From a candidate division WOR-3 bacterium (GTDB lineage Bacteria; Hydrothermota; Tepidihabitantia; SM23-42; JAOAFX01): a stretch of DNA of 46,347 nucleotides. Under the pieces are notes generated by a model. The model was not told the origin of the DNA and did no database searches. It worked only from the letters and a program-made list of their open reading frames with translations. Numbering within the stretch: the first letter of the stretch is position 1; every line of letters starts with the position of its first letter. The stretch spans positions 1 through 46,347 of the forward strand of contig JBDRVV010000022.1 of assembly GCA_039802005.1 (NCBI GenBank). The letters run 5' to 3'. The position numbers were made by a program, and so were the translations under genes. Positions 1,831-29,826 of the stretch are shown in pieces.

Positions 1831-1858
1831 TTGACATTTTTCAAAAATTGAATATACT
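1831..1858 (+). promoter_or_regulatory. Promoter of the lysA operon
   Basis: TTGACA (1831-1836), a 16-nt spacer and TATACT (1853-1858). The predicted RNA start is near 1864, the first base of the leader-peptide ATG. The same box geometry recurs throughout the window. Confidence 0.8.
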
Positions 1859-1863
1859 CCACA

Positions 1864-1932
1864 ATGATGAAAAATTTTAAGAGATACTGGATGAAGAAGG
1901 TTATGAAGGGAAGGGGCTTTTCGTTCCCATGA
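1864..1932 (+). CDS. Lysine-rich leader peptide (22 aa) of the lysA operon, leaderless
   Basis: ATG ATG at 1864 opens a 22-codon frame closed by TGA at 1930-1932. The peptide starts MMKNFKRYWMKK and ends VMKGRGFSFP, with five lysines (positions 3, 6, 11, 12, 15). There is no ribosome binding site. The ATG lies 5 nt after the -10 box, exactly as in the leaderless genes elsewhere in the window. The following RNA can fold into two mutually exclusive stems (separate entry), and the next genes make lysine. The arrangement matches classical ribosome-mediated attenuation. Function is inferred from position, codon content and RNA folding by eye. Confidence 0.6.
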   Translation: MMKNFKRYWMKKVMKGRGFSFP

Positions 1933-1974
1933 ATAGATATTTAAATGGACGAGAAGCCCACCAGAAGGTGGGCT
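1914..1974 (+). promoter_or_regulatory. Transcription attenuator: antiterminator versus terminator
   Basis: Antiterminator: GGGCTTTTCG (1914-1923) pairs with CGAGAAGCCC (1950-1959), ten pairs including one U-G. Terminator: AGCCCACC (1955-1962) pairs with GGTGGGCT (1967-1974). Both need 1955-1959, so only one can form. A ribosome stalled at the Lys codons (last one 1906-1908) would leave 1914-1923 free, favouring antitermination. One reaching the stop at 1930-1932 would cover it, favouring termination. Predicted result: the operon is on when charged tRNA-Lys is scarce. Confidence 0.65.
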
Positions 1975-1979
1975 TTTTT
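1955..1979 (+). terminator. Intrinsic terminator of the lysA leader
   Basis: Perfect 8-bp stem AGCCCACC / GGTGGGCT with loop AGAA, running into six T residues (1974-1979). It stands 25 nt before the lysA ATG and within its transcript, so it acts as an attenuator terminator and not as the end of the upstream genes. Confidence 0.8.
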
Positions 1980-2003
1980 ATTCCCTGATTAAAAGGAGGT
2001 TTG

Positions 2004-3221
2004 ATGGAACAGAAATGGTTGGCGACATTGAAGCGATATCTGAAATTTGAAAGTAATATTGATACCCCCTGTTATATCTACGACAGGGAAAAGATAGAGG
2101 AGAATATTGAAATTCTTAAAAGAAATTTCAAGGGTATCGCCCGTTTGTTTTTTGCAGTAAAAGCAAATACTAATATAGCAATTCTGAGATTGATAAGAAG
2201 TAAAGGTATTGGCGCTGAAGTTGTGTCACCGGGTGAGATATATATCTGCAAAAAGGCAGGATTTAAGGGTGATGAGATACTCTACAATAATGTTGCAAGA
2301 AAAGAAGATGAGATACTTTATGCCCGTGAAAATGGAGTAAGATTCTTCAATTTTGAGAGTATAAACCAGGCAATTTTCCTTGAAAAAGTTGCTCAAAAAA
2401 TCGGGAAGAAAATAAAGGCGTTTGTCCGCATAAATCCCGGGATATTTCCCAAGACCCATCCCCATCTTTCAACAGGTTCAGAGGCGAGTAAATTTGGTAT
2501 CAGAATGGAGGAACTTCCCGAGGTTGTCAAAATCACAAAAAAATTCAGGTTTGTGGATTTGATCGGAATCCATTGTCACATTGGCTCACAGATTCTATCT
2601 CCCAAGCCTTTCATAGATGCAAGCAAAAAGGTCGTTGAGGCAATTCAATTTTTCAGAAAAAATGGATTTAATATTTCTGCGGTAAACCTCGGTGGCGGAT
2701 TTGGTGTCCCTTATACACCTGAAGAAAAACCATTGAATTTCAAACCAATAGTAGATTGTTATAAGGCGCTGAAACAAAAATATAATGTCGAGATACTGCT
2801 TGAACCAGGCAGATTTTTTGTGGCAAATGCTGGATATATACTGACAAGGTTAATTGACAAGAAACAAAGGAATCGTCTGCCTATCTATATGATTGATGCG
2901 GGTATGACTGAAAATCCAAGACCCGCCCTTTATGATGCATACCATCATATTAACCCTTTATTTGAGAAAAAAGGTAAACAATTTAAGGTGAGGGTTACGG
3001 GTCCATTATGTGAAAATGCAGATGAATTTGGGGTATTCAATCTTCCTGAACTTGATATAGGCGATTATCTCTTGATACATAATTCCGGTGCTTATACCAG
3101 GACAATGGCTTCTACATATAATGGCAGACCATTACCTGCAGAATTTTTCGTCGATAATAAAATAAGATTGATAAGAAAAAAACAAGCATTAAGGGGGTTG
3201 ATTGAGAATGAACAATATTAA
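2004..3221 (+). CDS. lysA: Diaminopimelate decarboxylase
   Basis: Removes CO2 from meso-diaminopimelate to make L-lysine in the cytoplasm, using pyridoxal phosphate. The protein is 405 aa, fold-type III. Seen: the PLP lysine K53 in FFAVKANTN, the barrel motif GIHCHIGSQI, the phosphate-binding LGGGFGVPY, EPGRFFVANAGYI, and the C-terminal active-site CENADEFG. ATG 2004 was chosen over TTG 2001 because AAAGGAGGT ends at 2000. First gene of an operon with aspartate kinase (14-nt overlap) and diaminopimelate dehydrogenase. Expression is probably set by the upstream lysine attenuator. Confidence 0.95.
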   Translation: MEQKWLATLKRYLKFESNIDTPCYIYDREKIEENIEILKRNFKGIARLFFAVKANTNIAILRLIRSKGIGAEVVSPGEIYICKKAGFKGDEILYNNVARKEDEILYARENGVRFFNFESINQAIFLEKVAQKIGKKIKAFVRINPGIFPKTHPHLSTGSEASKFGIRMEELPEVVKITKKFRFVDLIGIHCHIGSQILSPKPFIDASKKVVEAIQFFRKNGFNISAVNLGGGFGVPYTPEEKPLNFKPIVDCYKALKQKYNVEILLEPGRFFVANAGYILTRLIDKKQRNRLPIYMIDAGMTENPRPALYDAYHHINPLFEKKGKQFKVRVTGPLCENADEFGVFNLPELDIGDYLLIHNSGAYTRTMASTYNGRPLPAEFFVDNKIRLIRKKQALRGLIENEQY

Positions 3222-4452
3222 AGTATTTAAGGTTGGCGGATCGGTCCTTTCAAAGCCCGAGGACTTCTTAAAAATTGCCCAGTTGATTCTAAAATTTAAG
3301 AATACAAAAATTTGCCTTGTAACCTCAGCAATAAAAGGTAAGACCGATGAATTGATAAAGGTTTACACCACGGCTGTTCCTGAGCCTGATTTCTATAATT
3401 TTGAAAGGTTTGTAGGTATGGGCGAGATTCAAGCAGCAATGATATTTGAATCGGTCTTCAAATACCTTGGCGCTGAAGTAAAGGCAGTTATTCCAGGAAT
3501 GGATGAATGGCCCATACATATAAGACTCGAATCAAAATCTCAACTCAGTGCACAAAAAATAAATGAAAAAAGGGAATTTAAACTCCTGCCTAAATCAAAA
3601 AATATTGCTAAAAGATATCTAACTCCCCTGCTGAATAAAAATAAAATAGTTGTAATCCCGGGATTTATTGCCCAGGATGAAAAAAATAACACCGTGACCC
3701 TGGGCAGGGGCGGAAGCGATATCTCAGCATTAATCGTTGCTGAACTATTAGAGGCAAAAGAACTCATTTTAGTAAAGGATGTAGGAGGAATCTTGAGTGT
3801 AGACCCCAAGATTGTTTCAAATACCAAGATGATAAAAAGACTTTCCTGGGCAGAACTTGGTGCCCTTGCTGCATCCGGTGCCCAGGTCTTGAATCCAATC
3901 TCCTTAAAGCATAGAAAAAATCTTCCTAAATTGCGGGTAATTGCCAATGATAGTATAAATATAGAAAATGGTGGTACTGAGATTCTTTTTGATAAAGAAG
4001 TCTCTATCACCCTTTCTGAAAAAACTTTCGGTGTATTGACTTTTATTGGTGAAAAAATTCCAGAGACATTAGGGATTTTGAGCAATGTTTCAAATGCACT
4101 GACCGAAAAAAAGATTGCTATCCATTCAATTACTATTTCTGATAATCTCCTGGCAATTTATGTTGAGGAAGACAAGTCAGAAAAGGCTTACGAAATACTT
4201 TCCCCCCTCATTTTAAAGATCAAAAGTCTTAAGGCATTAAACCTGAAAAAGGGGATTGCAAAGATTGTGATAAGAAGTTTGAAATTTATCAATGAACCAG
4301 GTGCTATAAAAAAGATAGTTACACCGATTTCCCGTGAAAAGATCAATATCTGGGAAATTTTAACGGTCCATACCGATATTATGGTATTCGTTGAATCCCA
4401 GGATAAAGTTAAGGCATACAATTTTATCAACCAATTATTCAGGAAGGAGTAA
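3208..4452 (+). CDS. lysC: Aspartate kinase (two C-terminal ACT domains)
   Basis: Phosphorylates aspartate, the first step of the lysine/threonine/methionine family. 414 aa. The N-terminal amino-acid-kinase domain starts VFKVGGSVLSKPEDF (the common form is KFGGTSV) and carries TLGRGGSDISALIVAELL and KDVGGILSVDPKIV. From about residue 270 two ACT-like units follow (TFGVLTFIGEKIPETLGILS and IVIRSLKFINEPGAIKKIV), expected to bind a feedback amino acid. Start is ATG 3208 behind AAGGGGG; a TTG at 3202 in the same frame is an alternative. It overlaps the end of lysA and is followed one base later by diaminopimelate dehydrogenase, so lysine feedback is likely. Confidence 0.92.
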   Translation: MNNIKVFKVGGSVLSKPEDFLKIAQLILKFKNTKICLVTSAIKGKTDELIKVYTTAVPEPDFYNFERFVGMGEIQAAMIFESVFKYLGAEVKAVIPGMDEWPIHIRLESKSQLSAQKINEKREFKLLPKSKNIAKRYLTPLLNKNKIVVIPGFIAQDEKNNTVTLGRGGSDISALIVAELLEAKELILVKDVGGILSVDPKIVSNTKMIKRLSWAELGALAASGAQVLNPISLKHRKNLPKLRVIANDSINIENGGTEILFDKEVSITLSEKTFGVLTFIGEKIPETLGILSNVSNALTEKKIAIHSITISDNLLAIYVEEDKSEKAYEILSPLILKIKSLKALNLKKGIAKIVIRSLKFINEPGAIKKIVTPISREKINIWEILTVHTDIMVFVESQDKVKAYNFINQLFRKE

Positions 4453-4453
4453 A

Positions 4454-5488
4454 ATGGAAAAAAATAAAATAAAGATTGCAATAATTGGTTATGGGAACCT
4501 TGGCAAAAGTGTTAAACTGGCAATTGAAAAAAATCCAGATATGGAACTTGTTGAGATCATAACGCGCAGGCCTGAGGCAGTGAAAAAAATAGAAAAAGAT
4601 ATCCCGGTATTTTCATTTGAAAAATTTGATATTCTTGCCGATGTAGCAGTACTATGTGGGGGCTCAAAAGAGGATATCTTTGGTTCAGGCAATAATAAAG
4701 AGTTAAGCACGGTACGGATTTCAGACCCCTATTCACATGGACAGGGCTTATATTTCGCACAATTTTTCAATACGGTTGATAGTTTTGATACACACCGACG
4801 TATTCTTGATTATTATCAGCATATGAATAAGGTAGCCCGATTGAATCGCCATACATCAATCATTTCTGCAGGATGGGATCCGGGAACATTTTCCTTGGAA
4901 AGGGTAATGGCAGATACCTTTATTCCGGAATGCAAAATTTATACCTTTTGGGGACCTGGTGTTAGCCAGGGTCATTCCGACGCAGTCCGTCAGATTCCCG
5001 GTGTGCTTGATGCCCGCTCATACACAATCCCGATAAAAAGGGCGCTGGCAGAAGTCAGAAAAGGTAATAAACCTGAATTGAAACCCAAAATGATGCATAA
5101 AAGGGTTGTTTATGTTGTTGCCCACAAGGATGCCGATCAAAAAGAGATAGAAAGAAATATAAAACAGATGCCCAATTATTTTGCGGACTATGATACCAAA
5201 ATAATATTTATCTCCGAAAAAATCCTGAATAGAAAGCATAATGGTTTTCCACATTGTGGTTCAGTAATACTTTCGGGTAAGACAGGCAGAAATAATAAAG
5301 CAGTGATTGAATATCGTTGTATCTGGGATAGCAATCCTGAGGCAACCGCAAGCATCCTTATTGCCTGTGCCAGGGCTTGTTTTAGACTGAATAAAGAGAA
5401 AAGATACGGTGCACTTACTATGTTAGAAATTCCACCCTCTTATTATTCAGCGCATTCAATCTCCGAACTGCTTCAAAATTATATGTAA
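4454..5488 (+). CDS. ddh: meso-Diaminopimelate dehydrogenase
   Basis: Catalyses NADPH-dependent reductive amination of tetrahydrodipicolinate to meso-diaminopimelate in one step. 344 aa. Seen: Rossmann start KIAIIGYGNLGKSVKLAIEK, then ILADVAVLCGGSKED, NTVDSFDTH, ISAGWDPGTFSLERV, the substrate-region WGPGVSQGHSDAVRQIPGV, and HNGFPHCGSVILSG. These are family hallmarks. GGAAGGAGT ends at 4450, four bases before ATG 4454; the upstream in-frame extension to 4391 overlaps lysC and is rejected. Its place directly after lysA and lysC means this organism can use the short dehydrogenase branch for both peptidoglycan and lysine. Confidence 0.95.
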   Translation: MEKNKIKIAIIGYGNLGKSVKLAIEKNPDMELVEIITRRPEAVKKIEKDIPVFSFEKFDILADVAVLCGGSKEDIFGSGNNKELSTVRISDPYSHGQGLYFAQFFNTVDSFDTHRRILDYYQHMNKVARLNRHTSIISAGWDPGTFSLERVMADTFIPECKIYTFWGPGVSQGHSDAVRQIPGVLDARSYTIPIKRALAEVRKGNKPELKPKMMHKRVVYVVAHKDADQKEIERNIKQMPNYFADYDTKIIFISEKILNRKHNGFPHCGSVILSGKTGRNNKAVIEYRCIWDSNPEATASILIACARACFRLNKEKRYGALTMLEIPPSYYSAHSISELLQNYM

Positions 5489-29749: not shown

Positions 29750-29751
29750 AA

Positions 29752-29824
29752 TACCCCGCGCAGGACTCGAACCTGCAACCCGCGGATTAAGAATCCGCTG
29801 CTCTGCCAATTGAGCTAGCGAGGC
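29752..29824 (-). tRNA. tRNA-Lys (anticodon CTT)
   Basis: 73 nt on the minus strand. Anticodon stem GCGGA/TCCGC with loop TTCTTAA, anticodon CTT for AAG. Acceptor GCCTCGC pairs with GCGGGGT (some G-U), discriminator A. T-arm GCAGG-TTCGAGT-CCTGC. Confidence 0.93.
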
Positions 29825-29826
29825 AA

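What the first reader, a model, noticed from the sequence alone, without database searches (positions are those of the whole stretch)
1831..2003. Lysine attenuator with a leaderless Lys-rich leader peptide
A promoter 5 nt from ATG ATG, a 22-codon frame with five Lys codons, an antiterminator (1914-1923 with 1950-1959) and a terminator (1955-1962 with 1967-1974) that exclude each other, directly before lysA. The geometry fits stalling at the Lys codons (up to 1908). Lysine control in bacteria is usually by an L-box riboswitch or T-box, so peptide-based lysine attenuation started from a leaderless mRNA would be unusual.
Basis: partly seen in the sequence, partly recalled or inferred. Interest (0 to 1): 0.8.

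Follow-up and report, generated by a model that had tools for sequence, protein, structure and literature searches.

The report
Lysine attenuator with leaderless leader peptide
In front of its lysine-making genes this uncultured bacterium carries a tiny gene rich in lysine codons whose translation most likely decides whether an RNA stop signal forms, and sister species use the same device for lysine, asparagine and leucine genes.

Summary
In detail: a near-consensus promoter (TTGACA-16-TATACT) ends 5 nt before a 22-codon frame, MMKNFKRYWMKKVMKGRGFSFP; a 13-bp antiterminator and a GC-rich terminator with a U run exclude each other; then Shine-Dalgarno and lysA-lysC-ddh. The window lies in a WOR-3 (Stahlbacteria-type) genome. 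Both other held genomes of its genus carry the same 22-codon frame at the same place, with Lys11-Lys12-Lys15 (always AAG), an identical terminator stem and the antiterminator kept through two double compensatory changes. A model built from those two finds the window element at 94 bits. Weak hits with this model uncovered sister attenuators: Asn codons before asparagine synthetase A and its operon; Leu/Ile/Val codons, in tandem, before leuACDB. In all ten leaders arm 3 is predicted to be held when the ribosome waits at the cognate codons, and released at the stop. No lysine riboswitch or T box was found in 147 genomes of the phylum. I conclude ribosome-mediated, lysine-responsive transcription attenuation on a leaderless mRNA. 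The mechanism is classical; a lysine case in Thermus is recalled, not verified; leaderless attenuators are known for Trp and Cys. New are the lineage and the leaderless regulon. Nothing has been tested experimentally.

The parts
1831..1858 (+). sigma-70-type promoter TTGACA-16-TATACT
   Evidence: 11 of 12 consensus positions; equivalent promoters in G001 and G002 at the same distance
1864..1932 (+). leader peptide frame, 22 codons, MMKNFKRYWMKKVMKGRGFSFP, stop TGA 1930-1932; inferred leaderless (ATG 5 nt after the -10 box, no room for a Shine-Dalgarno)
   Evidence: frame of 22 codons conserved in 3 of 3 genomes of the genus
1894..1899 (+). control codons Lys11-Lys12 (AAG AAG); Lys15 at 1906-1908 also conserved
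   Evidence: invariant in 3 of 3; position relative to arm 2; switch point in masked folding
1908..1929 (+). possible anti-antiterminator hairpin, 1908-1912 with 1925-1929
   Evidence: partly conserved, 86.7% of cells, one-nt register slip in this genome
1914..1926 (+). antiterminator 5' arm (arm 2), inside the leader frame
1947..1959 (+). antiterminator 3' arm (arm 3), overlaps the terminator 5' arm
   Evidence: 11 aligned pairs, 33 of 33 cells paired in three genomes, 2 pairs with double change
1955..1979 (+). intrinsic terminator: 1955-1962 with 1967-1974, U run 1974-1979
   Evidence: 8 of 8 stem pairs invariant in three genomes
1991..1999 (+). Shine-Dalgarno AAAAGGAGG of lysA
   Evidence: read directly
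2004..3221 (+). lysA, diaminopimelate decarboxylase
   Evidence: TIGR01048, 395 bits over cut-off 298
3208..4452 (+). aspartate kinase (lysC-like), overlaps the lysA end
   Evidence: also follows lysA in G001 and G002
4454..5488 (+). ddh, meso-diaminopimelate dehydrogenase
   Evidence: TIGR01921, 339 bits over cut-off 181

Best explanation
This is a ribosome-mediated transcription attenuator of the lysA-lysC-ddh operon that senses charged tRNA-Lys. Transcription starts at or within a nucleotide or two of the leader ATG, so a ribosome loads on a leaderless mRNA 5' end (inferred). If Lys-tRNA is scarce, the ribosome waits with Lys11 or Lys12 in the A site; it covers RNA up to about 1909, leaves arm 2 (1914-1926) free, and arm 2 captures arm 3 (1947-1959) before arm 4 is made; no terminator forms and lysA is transcribed. 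If lysine is plentiful, the ribosome runs on to the stop at 1930-1932, covers arm 2, arm 3 pairs with arm 4 (1955-1974) and polymerase stops at the U run. Shown from sequence: the parts, their conservation, the covariation of the antiterminator, the geometry. Inferred: transcription start, translation, stalling, response to lysine.
For: Same 22-codon frame, same distance to promoter and terminator, Lys11-Lys12-Lys15 all AAG in 3 of 3 genomes of the genus. Model R1, built only from G001 and G002, hits the window at 94.1 bits, E 8.6e-16; across 147 phylum genomes only the three genus members score above 40 bits. Antiterminator: 33 of 33 cells paired, two pairs with compensated double changes; slid registers pair at most 54.5%. 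These changes alter residues 19-21 of the peptide (FSS to LLF) while keeping the pairing; residues 9-12 (WMKK) stay fixed. Arm2:arm3 duplex -24.6 to -27.3 kcal/mol, matched by 0, 0 and 2 of 500 shuffles. With the transcript cut before arm 4, arm 3 is sequestered 0.77-1.00 with Lys12 in the A site, 0.31-0.44 at Lys15 and 0.27-0.28 at the stop, in 3 of 3. Seven further leaders of the genus with the same layout carry Asn codons before asnA or its operon, or Leu/Ile/Val codons before leu genes; the terminator motif occurs 8 times in the three genomes, always at such a leader, 0 in controls. Leaderless starts look common: promoter then ATG within 3-9 nt, 219, 203 and 170 matches against 9, 1 and 2 for the reversed pattern and 97, 84 and 73 for ATG at 15-21 nt. 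No lysine riboswitch or T box in 147 genomes.
Against: Only three genomes, one genus, so covariation is slight (53 of 500 column shuffles reach it). At equilibrium on the full transcript the terminator is favoured even with Lys12 in the A site (0.61, 0.73, 0.87), so the decision must be kinetic. Without any ribosome arm 3 is sequestered (0.90-1.00), so read-through, not termination, is predicted for untranslated RNA. Arg, Tyr/Phe, Trp and Met at residues 7-10 are nearly as conserved as the Lys codons. No RNA, ribosome or expression data exist for this lineage in what I searched.
Confidence: 0.87

Rival explanations
1. The leader encodes an arrest peptide: the nascent RYWMKK segment stalls the ribosome in response to free lysine or another ligand, instead of slow decoding at Lys codons.
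For: Residues R-[YF]-W-M-K-K are conserved in 3 of 3 and their codons hardly vary.
Against: W and M have one codon each, so codon identity there is forced; the sister leaders have unrelated peptides but codons of the amino acid made by the operon at a similar distance from arm 2.
Confidence: 0.06
2. A metabolite-, tRNA- or protein-binding RNA switch (an unknown lysine riboswitch, a T box, or a protein-bound leader); the frame is incidental.
For: Strong alternative RNA pairing; the RNA is conserved as a whole.
Against: No Rfam match at gathering score in this region; the weak hits at 1600-2100 include Phe_leader and Trp_leader, themselves peptide attenuators, far below cut-off; 0 of 147 genomes with RF00168 or RF00230; about 117 nt against a 182-position lysine riboswitch model; the frame keeps its length, start and stop in 3 of 3.
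Confidence: 0.05
3. The attenuator is real but the leader initiates by other means, for example from a longer 5' UTR made by another promoter, so it is not leaderless.
For: No transcription start has been mapped; G002 has GTG ATG, so the true start could be the second ATG.
Against: The near-consensus promoter sits 5 nt (8 nt to the second ATG) upstream in all three; the same spacing precedes many genes in the genus.
Confidence: 0.1
4. Chance: an ordinary terminator of an upstream transcript and a spurious short frame.
For: Lys content alone is only P = 0.04.
Against: Conservation in two relatives and the sister leaders.
Confidence: 0.01

Closest known systems
Classical ribosome-mediated attenuators (trpL, hisL, leuL, ilvL, thrL, pheL types; recalled)
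   Same: Leader peptide with codons of the end product, competing antiterminator and intrinsic terminator, regulation of the biosynthetic operon
   Different: Amino acid is lysine; leader start lies directly after the promoter without Shine-Dalgarno; arm 2 lies inside the end of the leader frame; no Rfam leader family matches at its cut-off
Thermus thermophilus lysine leader-peptide attenuator (Tsubouchi et al. 2005; recalled only, not found)
   Same: Peptide-mediated attenuation of lysine biosynthesis genes
   Different: As recalled, aminoadipate pathway genes in Thermus; here lysA-lysC-ddh of the diaminopimelate pathway in WOR-3; no sequence comparison was made
Sinorhizobium meliloti trpL attenuator (PMC7298713, passages read)
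   Same: Attenuator RNA whose 5' end is the ATG of the leader peptide
   Different: Tryptophan; a 14-residue peptide of a rhizobium; no sequence comparison was made
Mycobacterial leaderless polycysteine short ORFs (Canestrari et al. 2020; seen only as described in PMC9031893)
   Same: Leaderless short frame with codons of the sensed amino acid acting as attenuator
   Different: Cysteine; the review describes control of translation of downstream genes, not a terminator switch
L-box lysine riboswitch (RF00168)
   Same: Controls lysine genes
   Different: No match in the window or in 147 phylum genomes

Membership tests
Ribosome-mediated transcription attenuator | Short translated leader frame upstream of the structural gene | tested here: inconclusive
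   Frame conserved in 3 of 3 genomes; translation not shown
Ribosome-mediated transcription attenuator | Codons of the pathway end product at the position that controls pairing | tested here: met
   Lys11 and Lys12 end 10-16 nt before arm 2; switch in masked folding falls there in 3 of 3
Ribosome-mediated transcription attenuator | Mutually exclusive antiterminator and intrinsic terminator | tested here: met
Ribosome-mediated transcription attenuator | Read-through rises when the cognate charged tRNA is scarce | not testable with these tools
   needs an experiment
Leaderless attenuator (trpL of S. meliloti, polycysteine sORFs) | mRNA 5' end at the leader start codon | tested here: inconclusive
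   promoter spacing only; no 5' end mapped
Lysine riboswitch RF00168 | Match to the covariance model | tested here: not met
   window; 0 of 147 genomes; controls ring in 4 of 14
T box RF00230 | Match to the covariance model | tested here: not met
   window; 0 of 147 genomes; controls ring in 5 of 14, over the cut-off in 2

The most novel reading that the evidence does not exclude
A genus of uncultured WOR-3 bacteria without detectable L boxes and T boxes runs its amino-acid operons by a set of leaderless-mRNA attenuators that share one build, with lysine, asparagine and (in tandem) leucine-type sensors, and a related leaderless leader before an aromatic-histidine operon whose conserved end reads Phe-Asn-His-Tyr-Trp-Tyr-Trp-His/Arg-Phe. 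Lysine and asparagine sensing by a leader peptide on leaderless mRNA would be new combinations.
Probability: 0.6. Interest if true: 0.65.

Novelty: new member of a known kind. Interest (0 to 1): 0.55.

Why it matters
It shows, by comparison of sister species, that peptide-based attenuation has been recruited for lysine and probably asparagine in a lineage for which I found no description of regulation, and that leaderless transcripts can carry the classical switch. How the first ribosome couples to polymerase at a leaderless 5' end is an open mechanistic question which this set of natural switches would make testable in a reporter strain.

Tried and rejected
Lysine riboswitch, T box and other Rfam families: none at cut-off here. 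Leader before lysA in other genera: not seen upstream of lysA in G008, G017, G024 or in L032 and L034; there lysA itself usually starts a few nt after the -10 box, so the attenuator looks like a genus-level acquisition. The lysA 5' region was not available in G023 (L007 begins inside the gene). R1 also gave hits with E up to 1 in 33 genomes outside the genus; I read two of them (L067, L068), which lack the layout; the others were not read. A His-leader pattern over the phylum gave hits in 87 of 147 genomes, mostly noise; the one candidate followed (G002:C123) is a gene for a cation-transporter-like protein (named by eye) starting MNNHHHH. A Trp-leader pattern in three genomes gave 24, 15 and 15 hits against 7, 7 and 7 in the reversed control and no evident Trp leader among the matched strings, which were not followed further. 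No separate leader was seen at hisD or homoserine dehydrogenase. ilvB was not found above its cut-off. The equilibrium fold of whole leaders did not reproduce the switch cleanly; the fold before arm 4 did. The conserved GGGNN/NNCCC hairpin is only partly supported. The aromatic leader was left out of the ten-leader analysis because it has a long hairpin without a U run. Searches for print on lysine, asparagine or WOR-3 leader peptides: (search listings only); no lysine or asparagine peptide attenuator was seen among the papers listed.

Full report
What is there. At 1831-1858 stands a promoter with 11 of 12 consensus positions. Five nt later begins a 22-codon frame, 1864-1932, coding MMKNFKRYWMKKVMKGRGFSFP. 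Its end, 1914-1926, can pair with 1947-1959 over 13 bp; the second of these overlaps the 5' arm of a terminator, 1955-1962 with 1967-1974, followed by a run of U. A Shine-Dalgarno AAAAGGAGG and lysA follow, then aspartate kinase and meso-diaminopimelate dehydrogenase.

Conservation. Two other genomes of the genus are held, G001 and G002, with LysA 72% and 76% identical. Both carry the promoter, a 22-codon frame, the terminator and lysA-lysC-ddh in the same order (in G001 only the first part of ddh lies in the fetched stretch). Their peptides are MMKLFKRFWMKKGYKGVGLLFP (G001) and VMRLFRRYWMKKVHKGVGFSSP (G002). Lys11, Lys12 and Lys15 are AAG in all three, although AAA is twice as common as AAG in five window genes (131 to 66 of 2237 codons). 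A tRNA-Lys with anticodon CTT lies in the window at 29751-29825; I did not look for other tRNA-Lys genes. A covariance model made from G001 and G002 alone finds the window element at 94.1 bits. In 147 genomes of the phylum only the three genus members score above 40 bits; 36 of 147 have some match with E up to 1, most near chance.

RNA pairing. On the structure-aware alignment of the three (A6) eleven aligned antiterminator pairs are formed in 33 of 33 cells; two pairs change on both sides and one on one side; sliding the partner by 1 to 3 columns drops pairing to 32-55%. The two inner columns on each side that do not pair in all three were left out of this count. With three sequences the support is modest: 53 of 500 column shuffles reach the same covariation. 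The eight terminator pairs never vary, so they say nothing by covariation. The changes that keep the antiterminator alter peptide residues 19-21, which speaks for RNA pairing as the constraint there, whereas residues 9-12 (WMKK) are fixed.

Sister attenuators. Weak R1 hits inside the genus led to further leaders. MRDNKNKxPGF-type peptides (24 to 27 codons) stand before asparagine synthetase A in G001 (NF005054, 386 bits over cut-off 309) and before the next genes of the same operon in G000 and G002, where asnA is not at this place. Peptides with LLVILIAI and IVLVILIAL stand before leu genes in G000 and G001, each followed by a second leader, this one with Shine-Dalgarno, whose 92- or 89-codon frame ends with a Leu/Ile/Val run and has its own terminator. 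In G001 leuA-leuC-leuD-leuB follow (leuD read by eye, not searched). In G000 only fused fragments remain. The terminator motif RGCCCRCC-loop-GGYGGGCYTTTT occurs 3, 3 and 2 times in G000, G001 and G002, each time at one of these leaders, and 0 times in the reversed control.

Geometry and folding. For ten leaders (Lys 3, Asn 3, first BCAA 2, second BCAA 2) the leader end pairs with arm 3 with -22.0 to -31.1 kcal/mol, reached by 0 to 3 of 500 shuffles each. Lys11 and Lys12 end 16 and 13 nt (G000) or 13 and 10 nt (G001, G002) before arm 2; the first Asn of the NKN motif ends 13 nt before it in G001 and G002 and 8 nt in G000; Ile and Leu codons end 15 and 12 nt before it in the first BCAA leaders. 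I assumed a ribosome covering about 15 nt beyond the first base of the P site (recalled rule). With the transcript cut before arm 4, arm 3 is sequestered with probability 0.77, 1.00 and 0.97 (G000, G002, G001) when Lys12 is in the A site, 0.31, 0.34 and 0.44 at Lys15, and 0.27 to 0.28 at the stop; in the other seven leaders the drop falls within or just after their Asn or Leu/Ile/Val codons. On the complete transcript at equilibrium the terminator is favoured in many states, also at Lys12 (0.61, 0.73, 0.87), so the scheme needs arm 2 to capture arm 3 before arm 4 is made. Without a ribosome arm 3 is also sequestered (0.90-1.00 for Lys): basal read-through is expected for untranslated RNA.

Leaderless start. 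No 5' end has been mapped. The spacing of 5 nt between the -10 box and the first ATG, or 8 nt to the second, places the predicted start of transcription at or next to the start codon (recalled rule of thumb). G002 has GTG at the first position, so the second ATG may be the true start. The pattern promoter-3 to 9 nt-ATG has 219, 203 and 170 matches in G000, G001 and G002 against 9, 1 and 2 for the reversed pattern and 97, 84 and 73 for ATG at 15-21 nt; among 30 loci read, many of these ATGs open long frames. In other genera of the order lysA itself starts this way without attenuator, whereas here lysA has a Shine-Dalgarno.

Known or new. The mechanism is that of the classical leader-peptide attenuators. 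Leaderless attenuator leaders are in print for S. meliloti trpL (PMC7298713, passages) and for mycobacterial polycysteine frames (as told in PMC9031893, passages), and PMC11857589 discusses leaderless initiation for ilvBNC of C. glutamicum (passages). A lysine leader-peptide attenuator in Thermus thermophilus (Tsubouchi et al. 2005) is recalled and could not be checked. I therefore file this as a new member of a known kind, unusual for lysine and for its lineage, and part of a small regulon that includes a likely asparagine attenuator. Lysine riboswitches and T boxes were not found in any of 147 genomes of the phylum, while the same searches ring in control genomes.

Noticed in passing
L188:3124 onward (G000:C6), L189:166 (G001:C24), L190 reverse strand (G002:C87): A leaderless-looking GTG frame of 45-46 codons ending FNHYWYW[RH]FRAQ, conserved in 3 of 3, before genes that read by eye as DAHP synthase, pheA, aroA, trpE and trpG, with hisD after them: perhaps one leader sensing Phe, Tyr, Trp and His. 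It is followed by a long conserved hairpin without a U run.
   Followed up: partly
L063/L109 (G000:C8), L064/L111 (G002:C86), L066/L110 (G001:C22): Likely asparagine attenuators (MRDNKNKxPGF leader) before asnA or the next genes of that operon (a GCS2-like ligase, an aminotransferase, an M20 peptidase of unknown joint function).
   Followed up: partly
L108:366-1211 (G000:C23) versus L107 (G001:C42): Tandem Leu/Ile/Val attenuators, the first leaderless, the second with Shine-Dalgarno and an 89-92-codon frame; in G000 the leu operon behind them is reduced to fused leuA/leuB fragments while both leaders are kept.
   Followed up: partly
window:5579-5803: A 12 of 12 consensus promoter with ATG 5 nt downstream opens a 64-codon Cys-rich small protein before gcvPB; a homologue starts the same way in G002 (L093).
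   Followed up: no
window:1-1100: Tail of an RHS/YD-repeat-like gene with an interrupted frame near 240-250 upstream of the lysine operon (by eye, not searched).
   Followed up: no
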